In this document: positions 29,522 through 58,945 of the stretch, one piece after another | Layout of the letters: every line of letters starts with the position of its first letter | How positions within the stretch are numbered: position 1 is the stretch's first letter | Origin: Klenkia sp. PcliD-1-E | GTDB lineage: Bacteria > Actinomycetota > Actinomycetes > Mycobacteriales > Geodermatophilaceae | Length of the DNA stretch: 64,000 nt | Direction of reading: 5' to 3' | Assembly: GCF_024124375.1 (NCBI RefSeq) | Contig: NZ_JAMXRZ010000003.1 | Location: 1 to 64,000 of the forward strand | The notes under the pieces: generated by a model | The model's database searches: none | Seen by the model: only the letters and a program-made list of their open reading frames with translations | What the model was told of the DNA's origin: nothing | Position numbers and translations under genes: made by a program

Positions 29522-29560
29522 GGTCGGCGGTCGACAGCCGCGCTTTCCCGACGTGCCTGG

Positions 29561-30472: not shown

Positions 30473-30608
30473 GAGCGGAGCCTCCAGCGATCCGCGTTCT
30501 TCAGCAACGGGGAGCGTCGGGGACGGCATCGGAGAGGTGACCTGGAGTCGAGGTCGCGTGGGGCGGGGCGGCGTCGAGGTCGGCGCTCACCATGGAAGGC
30601 TGCACGTC

Positions 30609-32219: not shown

Positions 32220-32268
32220 GCGCACAGCGTTCCACGCGAGGGACCGGCCGGCGGCGCGTCCACCCACG

Positions 32269-42741: not shown

Positions 42742-45700
42742 CGGACCGCCACCCCCTGCTCCGCGTCGGCGGGGCTGATGGCGAAGAGGACCGCGGCGGG
42801 AAAGGGCCACGGCTTGACGTCCTCATAGCGGGTCTCCACCGCACGCCTCTCGCGGCGGCGCTCCTCGTCGAGCTCGTCGAGCCGCACCCGCATCTGCCTC
42901 AGATCCCTCTCCGACTGGTGCTGCTCCACGTCGAACAACATGGCTTCCGCCTCCTCCTGCAGCTTCTCCGCCTCGGCGATGGACTCGCGTAGCGTCTGGC
43001 CGAACCGGGTGAAGATGGCGTCGACGCGGGCGAGGTCCTCTTCGCGCCGCTTCGCCAGCCGCGCTTCGACGTCCTGTGTCCGCTTCTCGACCCGGGTCCG
43101 GATGGCCTCCTCGACGCGGGCTCGCAGACCTGCGTCGTCGTCCCAGGCCGTAGCGAGTCCCTTCCGCACGTCGTCCGGCGCCTCGGTCAGCTCGTCGCCG
43201 TCCAGAGCTCGGGCCAGAAGGTCTTCAGCCTTCTCGACCCCGACCTGCTGCCGGCGGTTCAGCCGCGTGCCGGCGAGGAAGACCTCCTCGTGCAGCCGGA
43301 TGCCGCCGCGGCCGACGAGGACCAACCGGACCACCGCGGCGGCAAACGACTCGTCGAGCCCCGGGACGACGACGGCGCTGACGCGGCTCAGGTCAGTCTC
43401 TCCGCCCCACAAGGCCGATCGCAGCAGGCGCGTGGACCGCTGGAGCAGCGGGTGACCGAGGTGGGCGTGGACGACATCGGTGGTGGCTCGGGCGACGTCC
43501 TGGTCGAACGTGATGGGACGCAAGCGCTCTGGCTCCAGCCGGCTGGCGAGGCCACGCGTCACCGGTTCCCACGAGCGCGCGAGGTCGGGGAGCTCGAAGA
43601 CGGCGTCGTCGTCCTCTTCCGCGTGCGTGGGGATCAAGGGCGGCTGCATGTCGAGTTCGAGCGCCGTCTCGACCACTCGACGAAGGTTCATCGGTCGGAG
43701 GTGCAGGCTCTCGCGGTCCTCCTGCAGCTGCGTCTCGAGGGCGGTCAGCTCGGCGTTCACCTGCCGCTGACCGAGGAGCATCTCGTTGATCGCGTGGTCG
43801 CCCTTGGGGACGTCCTTCTCCGAGCGGATGGCCATGACGGAGCCGGCGAGCTGCCGCTGGATGTCCGGGGCGATGATCTCGTTCGCGGAACCCAGGTCGA
43901 GCTCCACCCGGGCGATCTTCGTCGCCACGAGTGCCAGGAAGTGGACGTCGGACGCCAGGCCGGACCGACCGCCGAGCGGCTTGAAGTGCCGGATGTCGGG
44001 CTGGTGGTCCTGGCCGTAGCGGTCGACCCGACCGATGCGCTGCTCCAGCCGGTTCGGGTTGAACGGGATGTCGTAGTTGAACAGCCGGTGGCAGTGCGCC
44101 TGGAGGTCGATGCCCTCGCCGGCGGCGTCGGTGGCGAGCAGGACGCGAACCTTGGTCTTGCTGGGCGGCTCGTTGAACTCGGCCCGGGTGATCTCCCGCT
44201 GTTCGGGGTCGGTGGATCCGTCGATGATGGCGATGCGCTCGACGTCGTAGCCGTGCTGGAGGAGGTTGTCCCGGATCCATGTCAGCGTGTCCACGTACTC
44301 GGTGAAGACGACGATGCGCTCGTCCAACCAGTGCTCACCCGCGAGCAGGACGCCGTCCAGGTGCCGGACGAGCGCGGCGAGTCGGGAGTCGACGGTGCCG
44401 TCGAAGTCGTGCCCCCAGTTGCTCAGCCAACGGAGGTCCTCGACGTCCTCGTCCGTGAGGGGCGGGAGCTTGCGCCGGGTGCTGGCGAGGGTGAGCAGCT
44501 CCGTCTGGTCGGACCTGCCCTCCTCGAGGTCATCGGCGTCGGCGCCCAGGACGTCGTCGTAGTCGCCGCTCAGGTCCGCGTCGACGCCTCGCAACCGCGT
44601 CTGGAGGTAGACGTCCACGGTCTTGGCGAAGGCGACGGGGGAGGAGAAGAAGCGCTTCTTCAGCAGCAGCGTCGCCAAGTCGCGTGCCTGCTCGGCGGCG
44701 CCGTCGCCCGTCGCGACCGCCTTGTCGCGCCGGCTGGTGAAGTCGAGGAGGCGCTCGTACGCCTCCTCCTCGGAAGCGGTGGGCTCGAACGGCAGCGCCG
44801 TGACCTGCCGCTCCTTGAACCCCTTGGCCTCTTTCAGCGTGCTCTTGAGGCGCCGCACGGCGACTTCCTTGAGGGCCGACTGATCGATGTGGGACCCGCG
44901 GACGAAGCGCTGTGGGTCGATCATCTCCAGCAGCGCGGTGAACGACTCGACGTAGCCGTTGTGCGGGGTGGCACTGAGGAAGAGACGGTGCTCGCACTTC
45001 TCGGCGAGCTCCCGGACGGCGTGGGTGCGCTGCGAGTCGACCGCGTAGCCGCGCCGCGTGATGTTGAGCTTGTCGACGCGCTGCGGGCTCGACGGGGCGA
45101 CGTGGTGCGCCTCGTCGACGATCAGGATGTCGTAGGCGAACCGACGGGCGCCCTCACCCTTCGCCGTCTGCGCGTACACGTCGCGCAGGAGTCGTTGAGC
45201 ACGCTGCCCGGGCAGCCAGGACATCGAGACGATGATCCGTGGGAAGAGCGTGAACGGGTTTGCGTGCAGGACATGGCTGCGCCGGACTTCGCGCATCGTC
45301 TCGGAGTTGATGATCGTGAAGTCGAGGCCGAACTTATCGATCATCTCGTCCTGCCACTTCAGAGCGAGGCCGGCCGGGCAGACGATGATCGCAGTGCGAG
45401 CGCGGTGACGGAGGAAGAGCTCCTGGACGACCAGGCCGGCCTCGATGGTCTTGCCGAGGCCGACGTCGTCGGCAAGGAGCAAGTTGGCCCGCGACTCGCG
45501 AAGGGCTCGTCGCAGCGGCTCCAGCTGGTAGGCCTCGACGTTCGCCCCGCTGCGGAAGGGTGCCTGCACGACCTGCGAGTCAGCCGAGGTGATCGCGCCC
45601 CAGCGGAGGGCGTCGATGAAGGCAGCGAGGCGGCTGGGATCATCGAAGCGTTCCGCGTCGATCGTGGCGGGCAGGCCGAGCTCTGGCCGCAGTGAACGAC

Positions 45701-45893
45701 CCTGCTCAAGCTCCCAGACCACCTGGAGCTCCTGGCCGAGCCGATCCTCTTCGAGGGATTGCAGAGTGACGGCGTGCTGGAGGCCCGTGACGGCGTCGTC
45801 TGCTCCGCTGCGCGGCAGCCCCTGGACGCGTACGTCCGTGACTGCCCAGGTCGACCCACGCACCTGTGCGATTTGGCCTTGCTGCGGCACCAT
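42738..45893 (-). CDS. drmD: DISARM class 1 SNF2-like helicase DrmD
   Basis: A 1051-residue SNF2-family protein. Motif I is LLLADDVGLGKTIEAGL (about 141), motif II is LIVDEAHHVAPSSP (about 259), motif III is LFLSATPHNGY, and motif VI is RLEQRIGRVDRYGQ (about 621). The C-terminus has a long charged coiled coil (EKRTQDVEARLAKRREEDLA and after). It is the first gene of the five-gene operon and identifies class 1 DISARM. ATG 45893 gives the family-like VPQQGQIAQVRG start; GTG 45953 is also possible. Confidence 0.93.
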   Translation of the reverse strand: MVPQQGQIAQVRGSTWAVTDVRVQGLPRSGADDAVTGLQHAVTLQSLEEDRLGQELQVVWELEQGRSLRPELGLPATIDAERFDDPSRLAAFIDALRWGAITSADSQVVQAPFRSGANVEAYQLEPLRRALRESRANLLLADDVGLGKTIEAGLVVQELFLRHRARTAIIVCPAGLALKWQDEMIDKFGLDFTIINSETMREVRRSHVLHANPFTLFPRIIVSMSWLPGQRAQRLLRDVYAQTAKGEGARRFAYDILIVDEAHHVAPSSPQRVDKLNITRRGYAVDSQRTHAVRELAEKCEHRLFLSATPHNGYVESFTALLEMIDPQRFVRGSHIDQSALKEVAVRRLKSTLKEAKGFKERQVTALPFEPTASEEEAYERLLDFTSRRDKAVATGDGAAEQARDLATLLLKKRFFSSPVAFAKTVDVYLQTRLRGVDADLSGDYDDVLGADADDLEEGRSDQTELLTLASTRRKLPPLTDEDVEDLRWLSNWGHDFDGTVDSRLAALVRHLDGVLLAGEHWLDERIVVFTEYVDTLTWIRDNLLQHGYDVERIAIIDGSTDPEQREITRAEFNEPPSKTKVRVLLATDAAGEGIDLQAHCHRLFNYDIPFNPNRLEQRIGRVDRYGQDHQPDIRHFKPLGGRSGLASDVHFLALVATKIARVELDLGSANEIIAPDIQRQLAGSVMAIRSEKDVPKGDHAINEMLLGQRQVNAELTALETQLQEDRESLHLRPMNLRRVVETALELDMQPPLIPTHAEEDDDAVFELPDLARSWEPVTRGLASRLEPERLRPITFDQDVARATTDVVHAHLGHPLLQRSTRLLRSALWGGETDLSRVSAVVVPGLDESFAAAVVRLVLVGRGGIRLHEEVFLAGTRLNRRQQVGVEKAEDLLARALDGDELTEAPDDVRKGLATAWDDDAGLRARVEEAIRTRVEKRTQDVEARLAKRREEDLARVDAIFTRFGQTLRESIAEAEKLQEEAEAMLFDVEQHQSERDLRQMRVRLDELDEERRRERRAVETRYEDVKPWPFPAAVLFAISPADAEQGVAVR

Positions 45894-46418
45894 GCGTGTG
45901 CCTGTCAGGTCATCTGCCTGTCGAGCCGTGCCTTCGCGAGCCCCCGTGATCACGTATCGACACTATCTGGTCACAAGCGGCGATAGGCATGCGTGCGGTG
46001 CCAGGTGCCTGGCCGCGAACTAGTCGGTCTTGGTGCAGCAAGAGCCAGAAGCGGCAGTCGCAGAGGGCGCGTTAATCCGGTTTCCAACCTCCGGTCGACC
46101 GGGGTTCACGCCGCGACCGCAGGCGTGGCAAGGCGGATGCGTTCTCGCTGGTGCGGATGCATTCGAGAACCGGCAAAGGCCATCCTCGCGTCTCCTGGGC
46201 CGCAAGTGGATGAATTGACCCCTCTTGAGACAACGCATTCTCCACCGACTTCGGTCCGCGGTCTTCTCGCACCTCGGGCCGTGCGCCACAACCGGGTGAG
46301 GTGGAGGCGCTCAGTATCGAGATCTGTCGTGACGGGATGGCAAGGTTGCGGAACGAGGTTGGTCGCAGCCACATGGGGGAGATCGTTGTCGGGGCGCACC
46401 GCAGTCGAAGGTCAGTCG
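45894..46418. other. Divergent intergenic region between DISARM and the helicase pair
   Basis: About 525 bp without a convincing gene; it must hold the promoters for drmD (minus) and the HelD-like gene (plus). It is less GC-rich than the genes around it. The only symmetric element I see is a 12-bp palindrome, CCGGTCGACCGG, at 46091-46102, which is short enough to be chance. The in-frame extension of the plus-strand ORF through this region has a residue composition unlike the helicase and is not believed. Confidence 0.6.
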
Positions 46419-48665
46419 TTGCAGGGCGGGACATCAGTCAGCGCGGCCGCGCTGACTAGGCACCCGGAGCACGAGCTCGAGCAGGCCTACGTGTCCACCG
46501 CCTACGAGATGCTCGACAAGGGGCTCGCCGCGGTCGAGGTCACCTACAACACGTACGAGGAAGGCAACCGCGCCACGTCCTTCGCCCTCAAGCGTGCGTT
46601 GGACCTCCTGCGGAACTCGCGCGGATCCGGGCAGCTCGTCTTCGGTCGTGTAGACCGACCGCACGAAGAGCCGCTCTACATCGGTCGGCGCCGTGTGCAC
46701 GACGAGACGAAGAACCTCCTCGTCGCAGGTTGGCACTCCCCGGCGGCGCAGGTGTTCTACGAGGCCAGCCCTGCCCAACCATGCGGTCTCGCGCTCAAGC
46801 GGGTCTTCGTCGAGCAGGACCGGCTCTTGTCCCAGGTCGTCGACGAGATCACCGCATCGACAGCAGTCGACGTCCTTGCCGGCCGGTCGGACGGCCCGAC
46901 TCCGCTCAGCGACGCCCTGCTGATCGAGCTGGACCGGTCTCGTGATGGCGTCATGCGCGAGGTCGTGGCCACGATCCAGGCCGAGCAGTTCCGCGCCATT
47001 CGTGCACCTCGGGAGGGAGTGCTCGTCGTCCAAGGCGGGCCCGGGACGGGCAAGACGGTCGTGGGCCTCCACCGGGCGGCCTGGCAGGCGTTCAACGACG
47101 CCGACCTGAGGCGGACCGGGATCCTGGTCGTCGCGCCCTCCACCGCTTTCCTCAGCTACATGAGCGGTGTCCTCCCGTCGCTGGACGCATCCGACGTGCT
47201 GCAGGTCGACCTCGGGTCTCTCTACGCGGGGGAGGCGTTGGCGACTGGTTCGGAGAGCCCGGAGACAGCACGCATCAAGGGCAGCGCCGCGATGAGTGCG
47301 GTGCTGCGCCGGGCGCTCGACGCGCGTCGCGGGTGGGCCGATGGTGACCTCGAGTTCGCGCTCGGTGGTGCGAGGGCGTCGCTGACGGGCGACGAGGTCC
47401 GGCAGCTCGTCGCTGACGCGGCGTCGCGTCGCCTTCCGCACAACCAGGCCCGCGACGTGCTGCGGCAGGCTTTGTCGGCTGCCGCTTTCCGCGCCTACTC
47501 GGAGGCTCAAGCGGCGGCCGGGCGTGCGGTCATCGCGACCGAGCCGGCGCTGAGGAGGCTCTCCACCTTCACGAACGCTCTGGACCGGATGTGGCCGACG
47601 CTCACACCTGAGGAAATGCTGCGCGGCGTCTATGGCACCCAGACATGGTTGGTCGACGCGACAGCGGGGGTGCTCTCGGTCGATGAACGGGCTCTGCTCT
47701 TCCGTGAGCCGCGCTCCTCGATCAACGACGAGCCCTGGACGGCCGCGGACCTGTTCTGCCTCGACGAGCTCTCCTACCTCCTGAACGGCGAGGGCCGCTC
47801 CTACGGACACGTCGTCGTGGACGAGGCGCAGGACCTCTCACCCATGCAGGCCCGAGCGCTGGCCCGGCGCTGTCCGAGCGGGTCGTTCACGCTCCTCGGC
47901 GACCTGGCCCAGGCCACCGGCCAGTGGATCCGCGATGAGTGGCAGGAGCTGACGGTCCACCTGCACGACCAGCCGGCGCAGATCGAGGAACTCGCCGTCG
48001 GCTACCGGGTGCCCGGCCCCGTGGTCGAGCTGGCAGCCGGCCTGCTACCGCACATCGCACCGGACCTCGCAGTACCCCGCTCGGTCCGTCAGGGCTTGGG
48101 AGTACCGACGGTCCATGTGGCGGCGCAGTCGGACGCCGACCTCCTCGCAACTGTGGTGACGCTGGCGAGCGCGGACGTCGATGCGGGTCTGACCACCGCC
48201 GTCGTCGTCGCTGATGAAAACCACGCGGAGGTGTACGAGGCTCTCACCGCGGAGTTTGCTGACCGCGTCGGCGACGGTGCGGCAGAGGACTTCGGGCGGG
48301 CGCTGACCGTCGTCCCGGTGTCCATGGTGAAAGGACTGGAGTTCGACGCGGTGTACGTCGTCGAACCGTCCGCCATCGCGGCCGCGGGTGCCGACGGCCT
48401 TCGCCGTCTCTACGTGGCGATGACCCGCTGCACCCAGCTCCTCAGGTTGATCTGCACGGAGGACCTTCCCCCCGGTCTAGGGCACCTCCTGCCGCACGAG
48501 GTCCACGCCGACCGAGCGGACGTCGACGAGACGGACGACGTCGAGGACCTGACGAAGCCGACGGCAAGCCCTGGCTTGGCCGAACTCATCGACATGCTGG
48601 ACGACGACGACCGCGAGCTGGTTGTTTCGCTGGTTCACCGCCTCGCGAGGAGCACCCGACGATGA
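46419..48665 (+). CDS. HelD-like superfamily 1 helicase/ATPase
   Basis: About 748 residues, depending on the start. An N-terminal helical part (HELEQAYVSTAYEMLDKGL) precedes the P-loop LVVQGGPGTGKTVVGLHRAAW (about 205). Motif II is VVVDEAQDLSPMQARAL (about 465), and the late motifs are SMVKGLEFDAVYVV (about 636) and RLYVAMTRC (about 664). This is the HelD/HelR pattern; HelD proteins remove stalled RNA polymerase from DNA, but the family also includes DNA helicases. The start is uncertain: TTG 46419 after GAAGG is chosen, TTG 46386 after GGGGGAG is possible. The stop overlaps the next gene by 4 nt. Confidence 0.82.
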   Translation: MQGGTSVSAAALTRHPEHELEQAYVSTAYEMLDKGLAAVEVTYNTYEEGNRATSFALKRALDLLRNSRGSGQLVFGRVDRPHEEPLYIGRRRVHDETKNLLVAGWHSPAAQVFYEASPAQPCGLALKRVFVEQDRLLSQVVDEITASTAVDVLAGRSDGPTPLSDALLIELDRSRDGVMREVVATIQAEQFRAIRAPREGVLVVQGGPGTGKTVVGLHRAAWQAFNDADLRRTGILVVAPSTAFLSYMSGVLPSLDASDVLQVDLGSLYAGEALATGSESPETARIKGSAAMSAVLRRALDARRGWADGDLEFALGGARASLTGDEVRQLVADAASRRLPHNQARDVLRQALSAAAFRAYSEAQAAAGRAVIATEPALRRLSTFTNALDRMWPTLTPEEMLRGVYGTQTWLVDATAGVLSVDERALLFREPRSSINDEPWTAADLFCLDELSYLLNGEGRSYGHVVVDEAQDLSPMQARALARRCPSGSFTLLGDLAQATGQWIRDEWQELTVHLHDQPAQIEELAVGYRVPGPVVELAAGLLPHIAPDLAVPRSVRQGLGVPTVHVAAQSDADLLATVVTLASADVDAGLTTAVVVADENHAEVYEALTAEFADRVGDGAAEDFGRALTVVPVSMVKGLEFDAVYVVEPSAIAAAGADGLRRLYVAMTRCTQLLRLICTEDLPPGLGHLLPHEVHADRADVDETDDVEDLTKPTASPGLAELIDMLDDDDRELVVSLVHRLARSTRR

Positions 48666-51600
48666 CAGCTTCGCGCCCTGTACCCCAGCTGTTGACGCGC
48701 GACGCCGAGGCGAAGCTCAACCGCCAACTCGAGGCGTGGAAGAGCGCCCTGGTCGCGGTCGACCGGCGTCAGCGGCTCGTCTACTTCAAGCACACCAAGT
48801 CGGCGTCGCTCGAGGTGCAGCCGAGCCGCCTGTCGAACCTGTGGGAGGCCCTGGGGTCGGGTGACGTTGCGGTCCGAGGAACCGCGGTGCCGGGGGAGGA
48901 GTCCGAGCACCGGCCGCTCCCGCGGGACGGTCGCGTCGTCGTCGAGGTGACCAACAAGTCCGAGAAGGACCTACCAGCTTCGTTGCGGCGCCTCGACCAG
49001 GTCAGCCAGCAGACCTTCGCGGACCGCGGGTTCTGGAGCCTGTACCTCGGCATCGGGTTCCTCTCATGGGTCGACGCGGACGACAAGCCGGCCGAGAGCC
49101 CCTTGCTCCTGCTGCCCGTGCGGCTCAGCCGAGCCGGCGATGCATCACACTGGACACTCGCCGCCACCGAGGACGACGTGGTCCTCAACCCGGCACTCGG
49201 TCTGGTGATGGAGCAGCTGTTCGGCATCGCACTGCCGCCTGCGGACATCGACTCGACGGACGTCGAGGGCTACCTACAGCAGGTGGCAGCCGCCGTCGCG
49301 GGCGACCACCGGATGCAGGTCACCCAGCGCGCCGTGCTGACCACGTTCAGCTTCCACAAAGAGGCCATCTACCGAGACCTCCAGGAGAACGGCGCGACGG
49401 TCCTCGCCGACCCGATGGTCCAGGTGCTGGCGCTCGGTCCTGACGCACCTTCGGGCCAGGACTACGCCTTCGACACCACGATCTACGACGACGTCGACCG
49501 GGTGCTGCCACCCGAGCAGATGATGTCAATTCTGGATGCGGACAGCACGCAACGGCGCTGCATCATCGCCGCTCGCGACGGCAAGAGCTTCGTGATGGAC
49601 GGCCCGCCGGGAACGGGCAAGAGCCAGACGATCGCCAACGTCATCGCCGAGTTGATGGCGGCGGGCAAGTCGGTTCTGTTCGTCAGCGAGAAGGCCGCCG
49701 CGCTGGACGTCGTCCGCAACCGCCTGACAGCAAAGGGACTTGACCCGTTCATCCTGGAGCTGCACAGCCATGCTGCGACCCGCAAGCAAGTCGCGGGTCA
49801 GCTCCACTCCGCCCTGACCAAGCGGACTCGGGTGTCGACCGGCTTCAGCGGTGCCCAACGCAGCTCCCTCGTCGCCGACCGGACGCAGCTCACAGCGTTC
49901 GCAGCCGCGATGAACGAGCAGCGGGAGCTCCTCGGGCAGACCTTGTTCCAGGTCCTCGGCAGGACGACCCAGCTGGCCGCCTACACGGGGGTCACCGTGC
50001 CCTACAGGGAGGGATGGCTCGACCTACGCGAGCACGAACTCGCCGAGATCCGCGATCGGGCGGTACGGCTGAGCCGTGTCTGGGATCCGGTCACCGCCGG
50101 TCCGGACTTCCTGTGGCGAGATCTCGACATCGTGCCGGGCTCCCGGGTCGACGTCGATGACCTGCAGCGCAGGGCGCACGCCGCCGCGGCCGCAGGATCG
50201 TCGCTCGTCGACCTCGTCGACGCGGTGGACACCGAGATCGGTCGAAGCTTCCCGCGCTCGCACGACGCGGTGCGCCGTCGAATCTCCCTCCTGGCGCTGG
50301 CTGAGCAGCGTCCGCGCCACGCCCTCGTCGAGTGGTTGTGCCTGGACGGTGCAGCCCTGAGCGAGAAGCGTGCCCGTCTGACGGCGCGCAAGCAGGCTGT
50401 CGAGGAGTTCATGGCTGCTCAGGCCGAGCTGGAGCGCACTGCAGGTCCGCGGCACGGGGCCCTGGAGAGCGAGCTCGTCGTCCAGACCGAGGGGCTGCAC
50501 GACGACGGCCGGTTCGGCTGGGCGGTCGGCGACGCCGTGGTGGCGAGCGAGGTCGCACAGCTGGTGGCCTGGTTGACGGCTCTGCCGCCGAGGCTGGTCG
50601 AGATCGATCAGCATGCCCGTCGACTCGGGGTGGATCTGGGGTTCGGAGCGGATGGGCCCAGCCTGGAGGTCGCGCACCGCCTCGCCGACCTGGCTGCTCT
50701 CGGCACCTCGGCGGCGCGCCCGCTCAACGAATGGTTCAACCCGCACCTCCACGCCGCCCTCGCCGAGTCCGAGGCCGTGCTGAGAACTCTTGTCGTGACT
50801 GTGCGCGAGAGGCGAGCGTCCATCGACGAGGTCTTCACGCCTGCGGCCCTCGAGCTGGATCTCCATGCCCTCCATCGCCGGTTTGCTGAGTCGCACACAG
50901 GATTCGGTCGTTTCTCCAGCCAGGCCCGGGCCGACCGCAGGGCGTTGAAGGCCGTGACGGTCACGGGGAAGGCCAACGCCGACGTGCGGGCGCGACTGGA
51001 GGAGGCGGCTGCGTGGCAGCAGGCAGAGCGCGCTCTGTCGCACGGTGAGCAGGACCGCGCGGCGGGCCTTGGCTCATACTACCGAAGCGTCGACACGGAC
51101 TTCGACCGCGTCAGCGCCGCGTTGGAAGTTGCACGACGAGCCGTCCAGATCGCGGGACGTGACCTCGACGTCCCCGCCCTGGCCAACCAGCTCGGCGCTC
51201 ACGGGCAGCCGGACCCGCTGCTGAGCACGATCGGGACCGAGCTCAGGAACGCCGTCGCGCAGCTCTGGGGCGAGGTCCACCAAAGGTTCGGACAGTTCAC
51301 CAACCATCTGACCGGCCTGCGGGTCGTCGATCTGGCCACGTGGGCGGAGGGCCTCGCCGAAGCCTTGCGCCCCGTCCAGCAGGCGTCCGACCACGTGGCC
51401 ACGATCGTGGGTCGTGATCTGTCGCTGGCTGAGGTCCGGAGCATCCTCGTCGAGGCTGCGGACCGGGACGCCACGAGCTCCGCGATCCTCGAGGCCTTCG
51501 ATGCGGACAGGGAAGAGCTCGGTCCTGCCTACGACGGGATCGACACCGATTGGGCCGGCCTCGGGGGGTGCCTCACCTGGGCGGAATCGGTGCGAGCGCT

Positions 51601-54559
51601 GCTCGGTGGGAAGGCCGAGCCCGTGGTTGCGCAATCGCTCGACTCCCTCACCATCACCTCGGCCGAACTGGAAGGACGGCTGACGGCGTGGAGTGAGCAC
51701 CGCCCGCTGCTGGTCGAGGTCTTCGTCCCCGCTCGCCGGCGAGAGCTGACCGACGACCTTGCATCCGACCTCGTAGCAGCCGTGGAGCTGCTGCAGGAGA
51801 TGGCGGACACAGCACTCAACCAGGTGCCTGTCTTCGAGCAGTACACCCGGCAGCGGGCGTGGTTCGCCGTCAAGCTGGGCAAGGTGGTGGATGAGATCGT
51901 CGACCAGGCTCGCCCCGCCGATCAGGTCGCGCCGCTCATCGAACGAGCGGTGCTGCTGGCTTGGGTGGACGCCATCGTCCGGTCGGACGACAGACTGGAG
52001 CGGCACACTCCAGCAGACAGGGATGCCCTGGTCGAGCATTTTCGAGGCCTCGACGCACAACTGGTCGAACAACGCTTCGCTGACGTCGTAGACGCGTGCA
52101 ACGCACTGCGACCGGCGTCCCTCCACTCGCCAGCTGCGGGGATCATCCAGCGGGAAGCGATGAAGAAGTCCCGCCACAAGCCGATCAGGCAACTGATCAG
52201 CGAGACGGCAGGACTGCTTCGCCAGCTCAAGCCGTGCTTCATGATGAGCCCGCTGGCCGTGTCCCAGTACCTGCCCGCCGACATGCGGTTCGACGTCGTC
52301 ATCTTCGACGAGGCCTCACAGGTGCTGCCGTGGGACGCCATCAACTGCGTCTACCGAGGCTCCGCGCTGATCGTCGCCGGCGATCAGCGGCAGCTCCCGC
52401 CCACCAACTTCTTCGGTTCGACGGACGACGACGTGGCCGAGGACGACGAGTCGGCGCCGGACTCCTTCGGCTCGGTGCTCGATCTCGCCAAGGCGGCCGG
52501 GACCATTCCCAGCCTCGGGCTCGACTGGCACTACCGGAGCCAGCACGAATCGCTGATCACGTATTCCAATCACCGCGTGTACGAGGGCCGGCTGCACACC
52601 TTCCCGGGCGCAACGTTCGCAGCCGACGACCTGGGCATCGAGAGCTTCGTGGTCGAGGGCATCTACCAGCGGGGGACGACGCGGGACAACCCCATCGAGG
52701 CCGAAGCGGTCGTGGACAGGGTCCTGCACCACGTGGTGCGGAACCCGAGCCTGTCGATGGGTGTCATCACCTTCTCGGCCGCCCAGGAAGACGCAGTGCT
52801 CGCAGCCCTCGAGCGGCGGGCGGCTGACGAGCCCGTCCTGGGTCAGCTGCTCACCCAGACGGACCGCCTGGACGGGTTCTTCGTGAAGAGCCTCGAGAAC
52901 GTCCAGGGCGACGAGCGGGACATCACCATCTTCAGCGTCGGCTACGGCCCGGACGCCGACGGCAAGTTCACGATGAACTTCGGCCCTCTGAACAAGAAGT
53001 CCGGCTGGCGCCGTCTCAACGTGGCCATCACACGTGCCCGTCGCAAGGTAGAGGTCGTCTCGTCGTTCCGGGCCTCGCAGATCACCAACGACGAATTCCC
53101 TGCCCCGGATCCGGACCAGGGAGGGATTCCCCATTTGAAGGCCTACCTCGACTACGCGGCCCGTGGGCGAACGGCCCTCGCAGTCAGTGCCGTCGACGGC
53201 GACGCCGCACCCGAGAGCCCTTTCGAGGAGGACGTGCTGGATGTGGTGCGGTCGATGGGGTACCAGGCAACACCGCAGGTGGGAAGCGCTGGCTACCGCA
53301 TCGACCTGGCGGTGACGCATCCGGAGCGACCGGGTGAGTACGTCCTGGGTATCGAGTGCGACGGCGCCCAGTACCACTCCGCGAAATCAGCGCGTGATCG
53401 GGACCGTCTCAGGCAGCAAGTCCTGGAGGGCCTCGGGTGGCGGATGCACCGCATCTGGGGTCTCACCTGGGTGCGTGATCGCAACGGATCAATCCGACGT
53501 CTGAAGGCCGCCATCGACGCTGCGGTGGCTGATGAACCAGTTCCCACCGTGCCCCAGCCGCGAGTGTCGGCACCGGTGCAGGTCATCGAGGAGGAGATCG
53601 ACTTCGATGCACCTCCGGCGTGGGCCGTGCCGCTACCGAGCGCAGTCGGCTACGGGCGCACGCGTGGTGAGTTCAGCGGCTTCGCGCCCGGTGCGGCGGA
53701 GTCCCGACCGGCGCTGCGGGCCTACATCGAGCGGGTGTTGAGGGCCGAGGCCCCGATGCACCGGGACCGGCTCTTAGAGCTCCTGAGGACGGATTGGGAC
53801 ATCGGCCGAGCGGGTGCCCTCATCCAGGGCAACGTGGATTGGGTGCTGTCGCGTGTCCAGGTCGACGGCCTGCGCGTCATCCGCGATGACCGGGACTTCC
53901 TCAGCATCTCCGGGCGGACCGCGGAGACCGTCCGCGTCCCGGCCGACGACGATGCTGTTCGGAAGGTCGGCCACGTCCCGCCCGCCGAGATGGATCTGGC
54001 GGTGACGCTGCTCGTGCGCGATGCGGGTGTCATGACCGACGAGGCAGTGCTGGCCGCTGTGCGGAACCTGTACCGGTGGCGTCGAGCCGGCGCAGACATC
54101 CAGTCCGCGGTGTCCGCCGCGGTCTCGCGCGCGGAGACGGCCGGAGCAGTCCATCGCAGGGGCACCGACTTGATCGCGGCGGACCCGGCAAGGGTGCAGT
54201 CCGGCAATTTGACGCCGTCAGCCGCGATGCCTCACCGCCGGGACGCTGCGGATGCGCTGCCCGACCCGGCTGAGGCTTTCCGATCGAGGATCGCTTCGGG
54301 TGTCGCTGCCGCTAACCCATTGCTGAACGAGTGGTACCGCGAACGGTTGGACGCACTGGGTGCGGTGGACTTCGCGAAGTACATCGTGGGCCGGTCGGAG
54401 CCACTTCGGCTCCTGCGGCGGCTGGACCAGGAGGACATGATCGAGCACAGCGTCGAATGGGCTGTCGTGGACCCCGACTTCGCATCGCTGTTCTCCCGTC
54501 GGGAGATTGCAGTCGCCCGGCAGCGCCTGATGGACCTCGGCTACGAAGAGGAACGGTGA
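48662..54559 (+). CDS. Giant helicase/nuclease: DUF4011 - UPF1-like helicase - Vsr-like nuclease - DUF3320
   Basis: A 1965-residue protein. Residues about 1-250 are the DUF4011 region (VDRRQRLVYFKHTKS, GIGFLSWVDADDKP). The SF1 motor has VMDGPPGTGKSQTIANV (about 316), VIFDEASQVLPWDAI (about 1213), LDWHYRSQHESLI and LNVAITRARRKVEVVSS (about 1452). A long helical insertion separates motifs I and II. Next is a Vsr/MTES_1575-like nuclease (PFEEDVLDVVRSMGYQ, YRIDLAVTHPERPG, LGIECDGAQYHSA, about 1520-1620) with Asp, Glu and Glu in place. The C-terminus has a DUF3320-like domain. The architecture belongs to defence-island helicases. It overlaps the HelD-like gene by 4 nt. Confidence 0.88.
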   Translation: MTASRPVPQLLTRDAEAKLNRQLEAWKSALVAVDRRQRLVYFKHTKSASLEVQPSRLSNLWEALGSGDVAVRGTAVPGEESEHRPLPRDGRVVVEVTNKSEKDLPASLRRLDQVSQQTFADRGFWSLYLGIGFLSWVDADDKPAESPLLLLPVRLSRAGDASHWTLAATEDDVVLNPALGLVMEQLFGIALPPADIDSTDVEGYLQQVAAAVAGDHRMQVTQRAVLTTFSFHKEAIYRDLQENGATVLADPMVQVLALGPDAPSGQDYAFDTTIYDDVDRVLPPEQMMSILDADSTQRRCIIAARDGKSFVMDGPPGTGKSQTIANVIAELMAAGKSVLFVSEKAAALDVVRNRLTAKGLDPFILELHSHAATRKQVAGQLHSALTKRTRVSTGFSGAQRSSLVADRTQLTAFAAAMNEQRELLGQTLFQVLGRTTQLAAYTGVTVPYREGWLDLREHELAEIRDRAVRLSRVWDPVTAGPDFLWRDLDIVPGSRVDVDDLQRRAHAAAAAGSSLVDLVDAVDTEIGRSFPRSHDAVRRRISLLALAEQRPRHALVEWLCLDGAALSEKRARLTARKQAVEEFMAAQAELERTAGPRHGALESELVVQTEGLHDDGRFGWAVGDAVVASEVAQLVAWLTALPPRLVEIDQHARRLGVDLGFGADGPSLEVAHRLADLAALGTSAARPLNEWFNPHLHAALAESEAVLRTLVVTVRERRASIDEVFTPAALELDLHALHRRFAESHTGFGRFSSQARADRRALKAVTVTGKANADVRARLEEAAAWQQAERALSHGEQDRAAGLGSYYRSVDTDFDRVSAALEVARRAVQIAGRDLDVPALANQLGAHGQPDPLLSTIGTELRNAVAQLWGEVHQRFGQFTNHLTGLRVVDLATWAEGLAEALRPVQQASDHVATIVGRDLSLAEVRSILVEAADRDATSSAILEAFDADREELGPAYDGIDTDWAGLGGCLTWAESVRALLGGKAEPVVAQSLDSLTITSAELEGRLTAWSEHRPLLVEVFVPARRRELTDDLASDLVAAVELLQEMADTALNQVPVFEQYTRQRAWFAVKLGKVVDEIVDQARPADQVAPLIERAVLLAWVDAIVRSDDRLERHTPADRDALVEHFRGLDAQLVEQRFADVVDACNALRPASLHSPAAGIIQREAMKKSRHKPIRQLISETAGLLRQLKPCFMMSPLAVSQYLPADMRFDVVIFDEASQVLPWDAINCVYRGSALIVAGDQRQLPPTNFFGSTDDDVAEDDESAPDSFGSVLDLAKAAGTIPSLGLDWHYRSQHESLITYSNHRVYEGRLHTFPGATFAADDLGIESFVVEGIYQRGTTRDNPIEAEAVVDRVLHHVVRNPSLSMGVITFSAAQEDAVLAALERRAADEPVLGQLLTQTDRLDGFFVKSLENVQGDERDITIFSVGYGPDADGKFTMNFGPLNKKSGWRRLNVAITRARRKVEVVSSFRASQITNDEFPAPDPDQGGIPHLKAYLDYAARGRTALAVSAVDGDAAPESPFEEDVLDVVRSMGYQATPQVGSAGYRIDLAVTHPERPGEYVLGIECDGAQYHSAKSARDRDRLRQQVLEGLGWRMHRIWGLTWVRDRNGSIRRLKAAIDAAVADEPVPTVPQPRVSAPVQVIEEEIDFDAPPAWAVPLPSAVGYGRTRGEFSGFAPGAAESRPALRAYIERVLRAEAPMHRDRLLELLRTDWDIGRAGALIQGNVDWVLSRVQVDGLRVIRDDRDFLSISGRTAETVRVPADDDAVRKVGHVPPAEMDLAVTLLVRDAGVMTDEAVLAAVRNLYRWRRAGADIQSAVSAAVSRAETAGAVHRRGTDLIAADPARVQSGNLTPSAAMPHRRDAADALPDPAEAFRSRIASGVAAANPLLNEWYRERLDALGAVDFAKYIVGRSEPLRLLRRLDQEDMIEHSVEWAVVDPDFASLFSRREIAVARQRLMDLGYEEER

Positions 54560-54688
54560 GCTTCTGTGATGTACCGGTGCACGTGTGACCTCGGCCGCAG
54601 ATCGAAGAACGGGCTTCGCGCCCAAGTGGGACCCCGACGCTCGTCCGTCCCGGCCGCGCCGTCCGGACGGCCGGGATAGGTTGGCGCC

Positions 54689-55882
54689 ATGCCCGGTTAT
54701 CCTCGAATCCGTCGACAGAGCATCGCTGTATTCGGTGAGTCAGGTTCGGGGAAGACCGTTCTGGTCTCCTCCTTCTTCGGGCCGACGCAAGAAGGTTCTT
54801 TCAAGAACGACCTGTGGGACGTCGTGGCGCAGAAGGCGGGGCAGGGCAACCGCCTCTACCAGAACTACCTGGGGATGCGGGACAGTTCGACTCTGCCGTC
54901 GCAGACCCGTTTCGCCAACACTACGTACGACTTCGCGATCAAGCTGAAGAACGACAACCAAGAATCACAGAGCAAGCGACCCTTCGACGAGCTGCACCTG
55001 GTCTGGCACGACTACCCGGGTGAATGGTTCGAGGAGGACCCGGACAGCGAGGAGGAGCGTCGACGTCGCACCGACACGTTCAGGACCCTCCTCAGCTCCG
55101 ATGTCGCGCTGCTGCTCGTCGATGGCCAGAAGCTGCTCGACTATCGAGGTGAAGAGGAGCGGTACCTCAAGTCGCTGATCGGGAACTTCCGTCAATCGCT
55201 CGTGAGACTGAAGCCCGACCTGCTGGGGGACAAGGGTCCGCTCGTCGAGTTCCCACGGATCTGGATTCTCAGCTTGTCGAAGTCGGACCTCCTCAGCGAG
55301 TGGGACGTGGACAACTTCCGCGACCTCCTCATCCGCACTGCAGCAGACGACATGGACAGACTCAGGTCCGCGATAGCCGATCTGGTCGAGGCGCCGGAGG
55401 CGCTGTCCGTCGGGGAGGACTTCATGCTGCTCTCGTCAGCCAAGTTCGAGCTGGGGGCTGCCCAGTCAGGTGGTCCGGCCATCGACGTCACCAGTCGTGT
55501 CGGACTAGACCTCATCCTCCCCATCGCTTCTCTGCTGCCTCTGGAACGTCGAGTGCTGTGGGAGGAGCGGATGACCCTTCCGCGCAAGGTGGTCGACTCC
55601 TTGGCGGACGGTGCTGATGTCATCGCTGCCGCTCTCACCGGAGCGAAGTTCTCGGGCGTGGACAAGCTCCTGAAGAAGTTCGCCAAAGCCGACAAGCGTG
55701 CAGATTTCCTCGCGAAGGTCCTGCCTCTCTTGGCGGCGGCGGTCAAGGTCGCTGGCCCAAAGTTGAAGGAGGTGAACGAACATGCCCGGGCCCAGAACCA
55801 GCACCTCCGCGCCATGCTGACCCAGTTCAAAATGGATCTGGAGCAGGGGGTGGAGGACCGCATCCTCAGGGCACAGAAGTGA
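54689..55882 (+). CDS. P-loop GTPase-like protein of a putative two-gene system
   Basis: A 397-residue protein. Walker A is AVFGESGSGKTVLVSSFFG (residues about 13-30). LVWHDYPGEWFEED supplies a DxxG-type switch 2, and ILSLSKSDLLSEWD a TKxD-like base-recognition motif, so a TRAFAC-type GTPase is likely. ADKRADFLAKVLPLLAAAVKVAG and the rest of the C-terminus are helical with many Lys, without a clear membrane span. A 125-aa gene overlaps its stop by 1 nt. I do not recognise the family; related GTPases are known from conflict systems in which they switch an effector, and that role is inferred here. Confidence 0.65.
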   Translation: MPGYPRIRRQSIAVFGESGSGKTVLVSSFFGPTQEGSFKNDLWDVVAQKAGQGNRLYQNYLGMRDSSTLPSQTRFANTTYDFAIKLKNDNQESQSKRPFDELHLVWHDYPGEWFEEDPDSEEERRRRTDTFRTLLSSDVALLLVDGQKLLDYRGEEERYLKSLIGNFRQSLVRLKPDLLGDKGPLVEFPRIWILSLSKSDLLSEWDVDNFRDLLIRTAADDMDRLRSAIADLVEAPEALSVGEDFMLLSSAKFELGAAQSGGPAIDVTSRVGLDLILPIASLLPLERRVLWEERMTLPRKVVDSLADGADVIAAALTGAKFSGVDKLLKKFAKADKRADFLAKVLPLLAAAVKVAGPKLKEVNEHARAQNQHLRAMLTQFKMDLEQGVEDRILRAQK

Positions 55883-56259
55883 TGCCCTCGTCCCCACTCG
55901 CCGAGTGCGTCATCTGGGCCACGCGGGGACACACCTGGGGGTTTCGGTTCCTCCTCGGCGCAGGGCGCGGTGACCCACTCCACGACTACGAGCTGGCCTT
56001 CAGTGGACTAGGTGATGGGAATCAGTTCGTACCTGGTAAGGCGCGGGTTGCCTTCCGGATCGACGATCCACTCAGTCGCAGGGACGCGTCCGGCCGGATC
56101 ATTCCGCACGAGTTCGTCCTCTACGACGATTGGGCCGAGTCGATTGATTCGATGGAGGCAGGGATCGAGCGCATCTGGCCCTGCGTGGAGAACATCTACG
56201 CGGATGTCTGGGCGATGGAGCGCCCTCCTCAGCGATCCGCCATCCGGCATCGCCTCTGA
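55882..56259 (+). CDS. Small protein coupled to the GTPase
   Basis: A 125-residue protein of unknown family. It contains CVIWATRGHTWGFRFLLGAGRGDPLHDYE, YDDWAESIDSMEAGIERIWP and ENIYADVWAMER; the Trp- and acidic-rich pattern suggests a compact alpha/beta fold. No signal or membrane segment is seen. TGATG joins it to the GTPase gene (the adjacent GTG 55879 is also in frame). As the invariable second gene it may be the sensor or the effector. Confidence 0.6.
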   Translation: MPSSPLAECVIWATRGHTWGFRFLLGAGRGDPLHDYELAFSGLGDGNQFVPGKARVAFRIDDPLSRRDASGRIIPHEFVLYDDWAESIDSMEAGIERIWPCVENIYADVWAMERPPQRSAIRHRL

Positions 56260-56462: not shown

Positions 56463-58055
56463 GTGACTGGTCACGTATTCGTCGTCCGCAGCAGCATCGA
56501 GGGCATCGTGTGCGATGACCTCGTCGTCTCCACAGATGGCCGGGGGGCCACCGGCGTTCGCAGGTCGTGGTGGCCTGCGTTGGGGTGGAGGTCCGAAGCG
56601 GATCGGTCAGCCGCACGACCGGAGGATGCACAGGGGCGATGGACCCGACTTGCGTCGGGTACCGGCGGCGAGCCAGGGCGGTGGCTGCTCGCCGTCGGGT
56701 CTCGAGGAAGTGCAGGGCCGTCCTGGGTCGCTGATGGCGTCCGCGAAGTTCTGGATGCCATCGCTTCTCAGGGCGCCGAGCACCTGACTCCCGCGCGACC
56801 GAGGAGGGTGGCGGTACCCGTCTTCGGGGTGGACGGCGGTGGCCTCGATGGTCAGCGCGGTGAAGTGGTCGGGGAGCTGCTGAAGGCATGCCAGGACGCA
56901 GCCGAACTGCACGGCCTGGACGTGGTCATCGTCGCGAGAGCGGCCTCCGACTACTCAGCTCTTCAGTCTCTCCGGCGCAGTGCTCCTGCGCGGGGACTCG
57001 CCGAGCACCTCCAGGAAGATGCTCGTCGACTGGGCGACCTGGCACGGCGCGGCCAGCTCGCGCTCTTCATGGGAGCCGGGACAGGGGTCGCTGCGGGTCT
57101 CCCGCTCTGGAATGGTCTGCTGGCGCGCTTGGCCGAGGACGTGCGCCTGCCTGGTGGAGCCGGGGCCCTCGGCCGCATGAACCCGCTGGACGCCGCCGAG
57201 GTGCTGCGGCGAGCATTCGGCAAGTCGAGCGGCGAGACGCACTCGCTGGGTGAGCGGGTCGCCGACGTGATCGGCACGCCGGCTCGGTTCGCGCTCAGCC
57301 ATGCACTGCTCGCTGCCCTGGATGTCGCCAACGCGATCACCACGAACTTCGACGACCTCTATGAACGCGCCGTCGAGAGCGCGTCCGGCGCTCGGCCTCG
57401 AGTGCTGCTCCCGAAGGGGGAGCAAGCAGAAGGCGACTCGGGACGGTGGCTCCTCAAGCTGCACGGGGACGCCAGCGAGCCGGACACCGTGGTCCTGGAC
57501 CGTCGATCGTTCGTTCGTTACGACGCCGAGCAGCGCCCGCTGGCCGCGGTCCTGCAAGCAACGCTGCTGACCCGCCACCTGTTCGTGGTCGGCGCCTCCA
57601 TGAACGACGACAACGTCATCAGGCTCGTCCACGAGGTGGCGGTCCTGAAGGAGAAGCGCGGTGGCAAGGCCGAGCTGGGCACCGTTGTGACACTCCAGGA
57701 CGACCCTCTCTCCGCAGATCTGTGGGCGCCGGAGCTGCGCTACCTCTCGGTCGGTGGCGCCGCACCCACCGAGGAGACGGATGATGAACGCACGGCCCGG
57801 ATGGTGGGCGCGGCCCGGGAGCTCGACGTCTTCCTCGACCGCGTCGCGCAGCACGCAGCGCGTGGCACTGCCACCCTGATGGACCCGAGGTACTCGGCAC
57901 TGATCCGGGACGACGACGAGCGCAAGACGGCCCAGAAGCTCGCACAGCTGCGTAGCTGGGTCGAGAAGTGGGCGACGTCCGGTCAGCATGCCGATGAATG
58001 GCGCGACGTCCTGAATTCCTTGGACTCAGCAGGAGGAATCTCCGCCAAGCCCTAG
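56463..58055 (+). CDS. Macro-like - SIR2 fusion, putative NADase effector
   Basis: A 530-residue protein with two parts. Residues about 1-180 resemble a macro-type ADP-ribose-binding domain: HVFVVRSSIEGIVCDDLVVSTD at the start, then RRVAVPVFGVDGGGLDGQRG and LDVVIVARAASDYSAL. Residues about 190-430 are SIR2: LALFMGAGTGVAAGLPLW (about 200), AITTNFDDLYERAVE (about 290) and LLKLHGDASEPDTVVLDR (about 330; catalytic His in LHGD). GTG 56463 follows GAGGAGG. SIR2 domains in defence proteins consume NAD+; this activity is inferred. The macro-like assignment is by eye and less sure than SIR2. Confidence 0.8.
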   Translation: MTGHVFVVRSSIEGIVCDDLVVSTDGRGATGVRRSWWPALGWRSEADRSAARPEDAQGRWTRLASGTGGEPGRWLLAVGSRGSAGPSWVADGVREVLDAIASQGAEHLTPARPRRVAVPVFGVDGGGLDGQRGEVVGELLKACQDAAELHGLDVVIVARAASDYSALQSLRRSAPARGLAEHLQEDARRLGDLARRGQLALFMGAGTGVAAGLPLWNGLLARLAEDVRLPGGAGALGRMNPLDAAEVLRRAFGKSSGETHSLGERVADVIGTPARFALSHALLAALDVANAITTNFDDLYERAVESASGARPRVLLPKGEQAEGDSGRWLLKLHGDASEPDTVVLDRRSFVRYDAEQRPLAAVLQATLLTRHLFVVGASMNDDNVIRLVHEVAVLKEKRGGKAELGTVVTLQDDPLSADLWAPELRYLSVGGAAPTEETDDERTARMVGAARELDVFLDRVAQHAARGTATLMDPRYSALIRDDDERKTAQKLAQLRSWVEKWATSGQHADEWRDVLNSLDSAGGISAKP

Positions 58056-58945
58056 GCGGCGAGCGCGGCGCCCTTGAAGACCTGGTCCGTGTGCCACGCG
58101 ACGTGCACAGGCGCGGGAAGAGGCGTGCCGGGGCGAGCAGACAGAGGGCGGCCATGGAGCCCGTAGACCTGTCGGCCCGCCTCGGTCCTCGCCGTGAAAG
58201 AACCGGAAACCGTGACCTGATGGCTGTCGTCGAGCCCAAGAATGCCTCGGTCGAACAGCTTGTGGTGGAGCATGCACAGCGCCAACCCGTTGTCCAGGTC
58301 ATCCGGACCGTCGAAGGCGAACCAGCGGACGTGCGCCGCCTCCAGCCCGACCGGGACGCCTGCGACCTGACCGTCGTAACCGCAGAAGGCGCACTGACGG
58401 TCCCAGGCGTCGACGACGGACATCCGCCACGTCGAGTCCCGCCGACGAGGGGTCGACGGCGGGAGGATGGACGTCTCCACCAGCTCGGCGAGGCCGGCGG
58501 CGGTCAGGACGTCGTCGGAGATGGTGGCGGGGAACTGGCTGTCCACGAGGAGGCGAGCCAGTCCGGCGACGGCGGCCGGGGTCGACAGGAGGTGCTTCTC
58601 GATGTCCGGGACGAAGGCCCCGGTGACCCCCTCCCGACGAAGAGGCCCGACCGAGTCCATGACGACGTCACGGTCGAGCTGCCAGACGGCGTCCGTCCGG
58701 AGCCGGGTGAACGGGTACGCGGCGCTCTGTGCGGGCGATGTCCGGGAAGCCGGACCGAACTCGGCAATGAGCTCTGCGAGTTGGGTCTCGGCCACTGACC
58801 ACGGCACCGCCGAAGAACCGGTCGACTGCAGTCGACCAAGGGCGAGCAGAACCAGCAGCGGCTTGTGGGGCGACCGGGTGCCGTCGCGTTGGTGCTGTCT
58901 CAGGCTGCTGAAACGTCGGAGGACATCAGCGGACGTGGCCGTCAT
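58052..58945 (-). CDS. Sulfur-binding HNH endonuclease (phosphorothioate-DNA type, SprMcrA-like)
   Basis: A 297-residue protein. The N-terminus RRFSSLRQHQRDGTRSPHKPLLVLLALGRL carries the HKPLLxLLALGR signature of the sulfur-binding domain of ScoMcrA/SprMcrA proteins. The HNH part has CAFCGYDGQVAGVPVGLEAAHVRWF (about 190) and NGLALCMLHHKLFDRGILGL (about 230). Members cut phosphorothioated DNA (type IV restriction). No dnd modification genes are in the window, which fits. It overlaps a coupled upstream gene by 4 nt and shares the CCTAGG stop region with the convergent SIR2 gene. Confidence 0.85.
   Translation of the reverse strand: MTATSADVLRRFSSLRQHQRDGTRSPHKPLLVLLALGRLQSTGSSAVPWSVAETQLAELIAEFGPASRTSPAQSAAYPFTRLRTDAVWQLDRDVVMDSVGPLRREGVTGAFVPDIEKHLLSTPAAVAGLARLLVDSQFPATISDDVLTAAGLAELVETSILPPSTPRRRDSTWRMSVVDAWDRQCAFCGYDGQVAGVPVGLEAAHVRWFAFDGPDDLDNGLALCMLHHKLFDRGILGLDDSHQVTVSGSFTARTEAGRQVYGLHGRPLSARPGTPLPAPVHVAWHTDQVFKGAALAA

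What the first reader, a model, noticed from the sequence alone, without database searches (positions are those of the whole stretch)
46419..54559. HelD-like helicase translationally coupled to a 1965-aa helicase/nuclease, divergent from DISARM
The two genes overlap by 4 nt, so the products are probably made in fixed ratio. One looks like an RNA-polymerase-clearing ATPase, the other like a UPF1-type helicase with a Vsr-like nuclease and DUF3320. The two together may be a system that attacks transcribed or stalled foreign DNA. They sit back to back with drmD and may also be an accessory of DISARM.
Basis: partly seen in the sequence, partly recalled or inferred. Interest (0 to 1): 0.62.

Follow-up and report, generated by a model that had tools for sequence, protein, structure and literature searches.

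The report
HelD partner of giant helicase-nuclease
Two overlapping genes in a bacterial defence island, one related to a protein that frees stuck RNA polymerase and one a giant DNA-cutting helicase, were found together in every member of their lineage that was examined and seem to move as one unit, so they are probably a two-part defence system that may attack foreign DNA while it is being transcribed.

Summary
A 748-aa HelD-family ATPase (46419-48665) overlaps by 4 nt a 1965-aa protein (48662-54559) with DUF4011, UPF1-like helicase, Vsr-like nuclease and DUF3320. The giant is a diverged member of a known defence-candidate family (PADLOC PDC-S37; related to Hhe and 'ProA').

New here: the partnership is lasting. 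All 10 HelDs found of this clade, from two orders, have the giant directly downstream, and the paired giants form one clade. None of 17 related giants outside it and none of 20 sampled core-type giants has a HelD nearby; one further core-type giant (G020) has a HelD of another clade 3.4 kb away. HelD and giant trees largely agree and no third gene recurs. Klenkia brasiliensis shares just the pair plus 135 bp, without DISARM; DISARM lies near 4 of 10 pairs. So this is a separate two-gene cassette, not a DISARM accessory and not the chromosomal HelD.

The HelD keeps its ATPase motifs, but lacks the loop that clears the polymerase active site, has [GS]WH instead of DWR, and a C-terminal motif of its own. 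RNA-polymerase targeting is plausible but unproven. Verdict: new variant of a known kind; mechanism and anti-phage activity need experiments.

The parts
46284..46418 (+). Leader upstream of the HelD-like gene, conserved with K. brasiliensis; left edge of the shared block
   Evidence: blastn block 46284-54561, 91.5% over 8280 bp; the last ~90 bp nearly identical on direct reading; no sigma-70-like promoter found, no Rfam hit at gathering score
46419..48665 (+). HelD-family ATPase, 748 aa from TTG; Walker A GGPGTGKT, DEAQDL, LYVAMTR; GWH in place of DWR; no PCh-loop; clade-specific C-terminal motif
48662..54559 (+). Giant helicase-nuclease, 1965 aa, PDC-S37/ProA/Hhe-like
48749..49198 (+). DUF4011 domain (aa 30-179)
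   Evidence: Pfam PF13195 E 1.7e-23
49601..49624 (+). Walker A GPPGTGKS (aa 314-321)
   Evidence: AAA_11
52307..53041 (+). Helicase motifs DEAS (aa 1216), GDQRQLPP (1240), ENVQGDERD (1412), ITRAR (1456)
   Evidence: AAA_12
53222..53515 (+). MTES_1575 Vsr-like nuclease (aa 1521-1618); Asp of RIDLAV and Cys-Asp-Gly of IECDG invariant in the 16 aligned sequences (this one included), Glu of IECDG nearly invariant
   Evidence: best PDB match of the predicted fold is I-Bth0305I, E 3.6e-3
53699..54178 (+). DUF3320 (aa 1680-1722) and a second winged-helix-like unit (to about aa 1839)
   Evidence: my reading of helices and strands in the model
54287..54556 (+). C-terminal tail (aa 1876-1965), shared with a HelD-like protein in another genome
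42738..45953 (-). drmD of the divergent DISARM operon (neighbour, not part of the pair)
   Evidence: PADLOC DrmD 1237.7 bits

Best explanation
A two-gene anti-invader cassette. The giant is the effector: a UPF1-like SF1 translocase carrying a Vsr-like nuclease and winged-helix-like units that probably bind DNA. The upstream gene is a HelD relative recruited as its dedicated partner. Proposed mechanism: the HelD-like ATPase docks on RNA polymerase that is transcribing or stalled on foreign DNA, opens the clamp and exposes or loosens the bubble. It thereby hands an entry site to the giant, which translocates and cuts. Shown here: domains, intact motifs, the conserved overlapping or touching pair, one clade in each protein's tree, largely congruent trees, defence genes nearby, independence from DISARM. 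Inferred: physical complex, polymerase docking, loading, cleavage, and anti-phage activity itself. My estimates: two-gene defence cassette about 0.8; the polymerase step about 0.4.
For: Pairing: all 10 in-clade HelDs have the giant directly downstream. Paired giants form one clade, support 86/87, 0 of 500 shuffles as low; paired HelDs one clade, 100/100. Pairwise distances correlate r = 0.95, 0 of 5000 permutations as high, 6 of 7 splits shared. In an all-against-all of neighbour proteins only HelD and the giant recur in all 10 pair loci (crude gene calls of 100 aa or more). The block shared with K. brasiliensis is the pair plus 135 bp. Giant: PDC-S37 1158.7 bits, Hhe 532.7, antiphage_ProA 1122.8. 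Near pairs: DISARM, BREX (BrxC 1473, PglZ 708 bits) and ZacC 1150, type I R 595 and GmrSD-type Orf5 578 bits. HelD residues 17-456 align with M. smegmatis residues 9-447, i.e. the N-terminal arm and clamp-opening domain. A HelD-like protein in G020 carries the giant's own C-terminal tail, 46% over 79 aa, which links the two protein types a second time.
Against: No experiment. The HelD lacks the counterpart of M. smegmatis residues 448-520 (PCh-loop and 1A extension), and 10 of 10 carry [GS]WH instead of DWR, so polymerase docking or clearing may be lost. Giants outside the clade are found without HelD, so the family as a whole does not need it. Support for the clade of paired giants is moderate (86/87) and one split differs between the trees. 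The survey samples genomes; it is not complete. G020 has a core-type giant with a HelD of another clade 3.4 kb off on the other strand, so nearness of the two protein types is not wholly confined to this clade. I scanned only chosen neighbours; for G866 none.
Confidence: 0.5

Rival explanations
1. The HelD-like protein no longer acts on RNA polymerase. It is an SF1 motor subunit or regulator of the giant, like one motor of a two-motor helicase-nuclease such as AddAB/RecBCD, and the complex works on DNA ends or replication intermediates.
For: ATPase motifs kept in 10 of 10, while the polymerase-clearing PCh-loop is absent and DWR is changed; a clade-specific C-terminal motif in 10 of 10 could dock on the giant; paired giants show their strongest group-specific conservation in the central insertion (aa 931-960, about 2.9 s.d. 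above the mean 30-residue window, 9 paired against 5 unpaired giants, a weak hint).
Against: The N-terminal arm and clamp-opening domain, known to me only for their role on RNA polymerase, still align in the main without large gaps. The PCh-loop is also absent from B. subtilis HelD, which acts on polymerase (PMC7749160 passages), and from class III (PMC8655204).
Confidence: 0.3
2. Self-protection: the giant attacks transcribed DNA or R-loops, and the HelD-like protein clears host polymerase or restrains the giant so that the host chromosome is spared.
For: Overlapping or touching genes with the partner first, an order also seen in toxin-antitoxin modules (recalled).
Against: Related giants exist without it: 17 of 17 outside the clade and 20 of 20 core-type had no HelD nearby, so there is no general need for protection.
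Confidence: 0.12
3. Accessory module of DISARM.
For: Divergent from drmD here and in G014 and G039; in G476 drmB and drmA lie roughly 6-12 kb from the HelD gene.
Against: Six of 10 pairs lack DISARM in the stretches read (one 48-bit partial helicase match in G1047 belongs to a ZacC protein). Pair and DISARM differ in divergence (DrmD 89% against HelD 66-67% and giant 55-58%), and the blocks shared with relatives end between them.
Confidence: 0.05
4. Chance neighbours in a hotspot, joined only by hitch-hiking.
For: Defence islands shuffle genes; the clade is small (10 genomes found).
Against: Kept across two orders with overlap or near-contact, largely congruent trees and no other neighbour recurring in all 10.
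Confidence: 0.03

Closest known systems
PDC-S37 (PADLOC single-gene defence candidate)
   Same: The giant matches it with 1158.7 bits in 3 stretches, the best covering profile 645-1541 of 1550
   Different: As I understand the name (recalled), PDC-S37 is a one-gene candidate; here a HelD-like gene always came with the giant. I did not see the paper that defines it
Antiphage ProA (NCBIfam NF058533; possibly the DefenseFinder system called Prometheus, my inference from the name)
   Same: 1122.8 bits, best stretch aa 918-1802
   Different: Below the curated cut-off of 1500, so a diverged relative
Hhe (NCBIfam NF042953, PADLOC PDLC02194)
   Same: DUF4011, SF1 helicase, Vsr-like nuclease; its origin in the Gao et al. 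2020 screen is recalled
   Different: 758.8 bits against a cut-off of 2000; no HelD partner known to me
HelD of M. smegmatis (class II) and HelR
   Same: Near whole-length homology, N-terminal arm, clamp-opening domain, ATPase motifs
   Different: No PCh-loop or 1A extension, [GS]WH for DWR, extra C-terminal motif; 28-40% of the class II HelD and HelR cut-offs; beside the giant in 10 of 10
DISARM
   Same: Neighbour in this window and near 4 of 10 pairs
   Different: The pair is not among the drm genes and occurs in 6 of 10 cases without them nearby

Membership tests
HelD (transcription recycling factor) | SF1 ATPase with Walker A, DEAQ and motif VI | tested here: met
   10 of 10 paired HelDs
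HelD (transcription recycling factor) | N-terminal arm and clamp-opening insertion in domain 1A | tested here: met
   By sequence only: residues 17-456 align to 6yxu 9-447; the structure prediction failed (pLDDT 34)
HelD (transcription recycling factor) | Absolutely conserved DWR motif (PMC8655204, section 3.3 read) | tested here: not met
   [GS]WH in 10 of 10; Trp kept
HelD class II | PCh-loop that folds into the polymerase active site (PMC7749160, passages read) | tested here: not met
   6yxu 448-520 falls in the gap between two aligned stretches, where this protein has 4 residues; Walker A to DEAQ is 259-262 residues in all 10 against 329 in 6yxu (counted from the alignment)
HelD / HelR equivalogs (NCBIfam) | Curated score cut-offs 1100, 750, 1051, 419 | tested here: not met
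   340, 297, 294, 140 bits
HelD (transcription recycling factor) | Binds RNA polymerase | not testable with these tools
   none
Hhe | DUF4011 + SF1 helicase + Vsr-like nuclease in that order | tested here: met
   Pfam hits in that order
Hhe | NCBIfam equivalog cut-off 2000 bits | tested here: not met
   758.8 bits
ProA | NCBIfam equivalog cut-off 1500 bits | tested here: not met
   1122.8 bits
PDC-S37 | PADLOC HMM match | tested here: met
   1158.7 bits, E 0, 3 stretches, the best over profile 645-1541 of 1550; PADLOC's own cut-off is not shown by the tool
PDC-S37 / Hhe / ProA | Protects against phage | not testable with these tools
   none
DISARM accessory | Regular co-occurrence with drm genes | tested here: not met
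   4 of 10 pairs (this window)

The most novel reading that the evidence does not exclude
Transcription-targeted immunity: a HelD descendant senses or prises open RNA polymerase on invading DNA and loads a dedicated giant helicase-nuclease there, so that transcription of the phage genome itself marks it for destruction.
Probability: 0.33. Interest if true: 0.85.

Novelty: new variant of a known kind. Interest (0 to 1): 0.6.

Why it matters
HelD proteins are known for rescuing RNA polymerase and for rifampicin resistance. A HelD lineage that has become the constant genetic partner of a defence-type helicase-nuclease would be a new use of this family; I saw none reported in the listings, which are noisy and cover part of the literature. 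It makes a concrete question testable: can bacterial defence read transcription of invading DNA as its trigger? It also gives a handle on how PDC-S37/Hhe-type giants, whose mechanism is not known to me, find their target.

Tried and rejected
DISARM-accessory reading: rejected on co-occurrence (4 of 10).

Conserved chromosomal HelD reading: rejected (5 of 112 family genomes; HelD relatives elsewhere on C111 and C66).

Core giant reading: 95 of 112 family genomes have a match to the giant at E <= 1e-50. Five are full-length or nearly so at over 50% identity, and all 5 are paired. Of the other 90 genomes I read 20 with flanks; none has a HelD within the 16-kb stretch. G020, outside those 20, has a HelD of another clade 3.4 kb from its core-type giant.

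Check of the 17 unpaired giants without regard to gene calls: one 36.6-bit, 90-residue match in L084, inside a protein related to a Schlafen-type helicase of G053, no HelD.

Structure of the giant's C-terminus: partial (pLDDT 70.7, pTM 0.39; no Foldseek hit at E <= 0.001, best 3.6e-3).

Viral contigs: no relative of either protein (single-sequence patterns reach close relatives only). Plasmids: all 10 records with a HelD match at E <= 1e-60 were listed, best identity 38.7%, so no clade member among them; of 84 records with a giant match at E <= 1e-100, 25 were listed and 1 covers at least 80% of the query.

Promoter and Rfam scans: nothing. Literature searches. No listing showed a paper that ties HelD to phage defence, but the word 'held' makes such searches noisy, only the top rows are shown and the library is partial. 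Papers: sections 3.3 and 3.5 of PMC8655204 read, plus passages; passages only of PMC7749160, PMC10250203, PMC13092281, PMC12629846, PMC12846349, PMC13356809 and PMC12390725; all others as listings.

Rows dropped before counts: L040 (contig begins inside the giant) is not among the 17 unpaired. L041-L057, more distant giants, are not counted either; no HelD match at E <= 1e-3 in L040-L057, but several of these contigs are cut near the giant. L078 and L080, whose giants are cut by the contig end, are in the 17 but not in the tree.

Full report
What is there. The window lies on contig C196 of a genome whose closest named relative in these searches is Klenkia brasiliensis (Geodermatophilaceae by recall). 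The first gene, 46419-48665 (+), encodes a HelD-family ATPase; the second, 48662-54559 (+), a 1965-aa helicase-nuclease. They share ATGA. The TTG start of the first is supported by a GAAGG 7 nt upstream that is kept in K. brasiliensis, not proven. Both frames are clearly protein-coding: each has homologues aligned over nearly its whole length.

The giant. Pfam finds DUF4011 (aa 30-179), AAA_11/AAA_12 helicase parts, MTES_1575 nuclease (1521-1618) and DUF3320 (1680-1722). The SF1 motifs looked for are present. In 16 aligned sequences, this one included, the Asp of RIDLAV and the Cys-Asp-Gly of IECDG are invariant and the Glu nearly so. A model of the C-terminal 486 residues (pLDDT 70.7, pTM 0.39) gives a nuclease whose best PDB match is the catalytic domain of I-Bth0305I (E 3.6e-3, target TM 0.70-0.82), a Vsr-like enzyme by recall, followed by two units that I read as winged helices. 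By sequence the giant is PDC-S37-like (1158.7 bits), with Hhe at 532.7, and it lies below the NCBIfam cut-offs for ProA (1122.8 of 1500) and Hhe (758.8 of 2000). The wider family is common: 95 of 112 genomes of the family have a match at E <= 1e-50, in most cases to another giant at about 34-44% identity over part of the length, which I call core-type. A DUF4011 gene is likewise a core flank of a defence hotspot in P. aeruginosa (PMC10250203, passages read).

The HelD-like protein. It matches M. smegmatis HelD (6yxu) at E 9.6e-73 and B. subtilis HelD at 1.9e-31, but reaches only 140-340 bits against NCBIfam cut-offs of 419-1100. Residues 17-456 align with 6yxu 9-447, the N-terminal arm and clamp-opening domain; the next aligned stretch begins at 461 against 521. 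What is missing holds the PCh-loop (448-503), which folds into the polymerase active site, and nearly all of the 1A extension (504-521) (PMC7749160, passages read). The DWR motif, described as absolutely conserved in HelD (PMC8655204, section 3.3 read), is GWH or SWH in 10 of 10 paired HelDs, while Walker A, DEAQDL and motif VI are intact in 10 of 10; Walker A and DEAQ are 259-262 residues apart in all 10, against 329 in 6yxu. Absence of the loop alone is not special: B. subtilis HelD lacks it, and a second HelD relative in this genome has a short spacing too (254). All 10 have an extra C-terminal stretch with a recurring pattern of hydrophobic residues, roughly LxxLIxxLxxxDxxLVxxLVxRL.

The pair is real. 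HelD searches independent of the giant (249, 394, 112 and 312 genomes, overlapping samples, thresholds 1e-105 to 1e-115) gave hits in 13 genomes. Ten form one clade with 100/100 support, and all 10 have the giant directly downstream on the same strand. The other three (G020, G163, G312; 38-40% identity) fall outside the clade and have no giant directly downstream; G020 has a core-type giant on the opposite strand 3.4 kb away. The exact 4-nt overlap recurs in 6 of 10; the others are overlaps of 17, 11 and 8 nt and a 10-nt gap with my start choices. In the tree of 26 giants the 10 paired ones are one side of a branch (86/87; one change, against 8.3 in shuffles). The five giants nearest to them (G141, G183, Prescottella, Gordonia, Williamsia) are unpaired. 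Of 17 giants outside the clade read with upstream sequence (L036-L039, L074-L086) none has a HelD, nor has any of 20 core-type giants read in 16-kb stretches, chosen out of 90. HelD and giant distances correlate at r = 0.95 and the trees share 6 of 7 splits; the one that differs is the placing of G014 and G039. An all-against-all of neighbouring proteins, from crude gene calls of 100 aa or more, shows no third family in all 10 loci.

It moves as a unit, apart from DISARM. Against K. brasiliensis the window shares 46284-54561 at 91.5% (8280 bp): the pair, 135 bp before it and 2 bp after its stop. The right-hand flank from 60250 is shared too, but not the DISARM block. Against G014 and G039 the DISARM region (within 29559-45878, in two pieces) is shared at 82-85%, the pair in pieces at 66-74%; as proteins DrmD is 89%, HelD 66-67% and the giant 55-58% identical. 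DISARM genes lie by the pair in 4 of 10: here, G014 and G039 (divergent drmD) and G476 (drmB and drmA roughly 6-12 kb off, with genes that I read as a McrBC-like pair between). In the stretches read around the other six there are none (about 34-60 kb each). Other defence genes near pairs: BREX BrxC and PglZ (G957), ZacC (G1047), a weak ZorD-like match of 56 bits (G791); type I R and a GmrSD-like Orf5 (K. brasiliensis). I scanned only chosen neighbours, and none of G866.

An unexpected link. The giant's last 90 residues were sought in 25 genomes. Besides this giant they occur in the K. brasiliensis giant, weakly in the G014 giant and in a short frame downstream of it, and at the C-terminus of the 917-aa HelD-like protein of G020 (46% over 79 aa). 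That one tail sits on a HelD-like protein and on a HelD-paired giant suggests a common partner or an exchanged docking module. Only 3 of the 10 paired giants show it, so it cannot be the general basis of pairing.

How it probably works. The giant has what an effector needs: motor, nuclease and probable DNA-binding units. The partner descends from a protein whose arms enter the two channels of RNA polymerase. I favour a loader or sensor role at polymerase on foreign DNA, about 0.4, over a polymerase-free motor-subunit role, about 0.3. The missing PCh-loop and the changed DWR speak against simple polymerase recycling and fit either a modified engagement (clamp opening without active-site clearing) or a new role. 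Complex formation, polymerase binding, cutting and phage protection are all unshown.

Novelty. Giant and HelD are each known kinds; the fixed pairing is not described in anything I saw (with the limits stated). I rate it a new variant of a known kind.

Noticed in passing
window 54689-55882, 55879-56259, 56463-58055: Double-GTPase-2 protein (E 4.5e-10), a small ORF with no family hit, and a SIR2_2 protein (E 3.9e-19; ThsA-like 77.6 bits in PADLOC) next to the pair; possibly another defence system. A 35%-identical SIR2 relative lies beside a lone giant in Gordonia (L037).
   Followed up: partly
L106:12397-15150 (-) (G020): A 917-aa HelD-like protein ends in the C-terminal tail of the window's giant (46% over 79 aa), 3.4 kb from a core-type giant on the other strand.
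   Followed up: partly
L074:13552-16047 (G141); G1047 and G053 loci: A lone giant overlaps by 4 nt an 831-aa SMC/RecN-like ATPase (my reading of its sequence, no family scan); relatives of it also lie near the pairs of G1047 and G053.
   Followed up: no
L107:2989-6540, L109:2812-6243: Two conjugative Streptomyces plasmids carry HelD-like proteins of 1183 and 1143 aa with a long extra C-terminal part and LWT or PWT in place of DWR.
   Followed up: no
genus of the window, G077-G083: The core-type DUF4011 giant found in most of the family has no match at E <= 1e-50 in 7 other genomes of this genus; the only matches in the genus are the two HelD-paired giants.
   Followed up: no
contig C196 about 64970-66610 (L092:9971-11611); L093:2042-3682; L059:17549-19186; L060:3393-5039: A 545-548-aa gene that I read as nuclease-helicase-like flanks the island in four genomes of three genera, which suggests a shared defence hotspot.
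   Followed up: partly
window 27746-29521, 29561-30529, 58052-58945: GmrSD_N and two HNH_2 proteins on either side of the DISARM-pair region.
   Followed up: no
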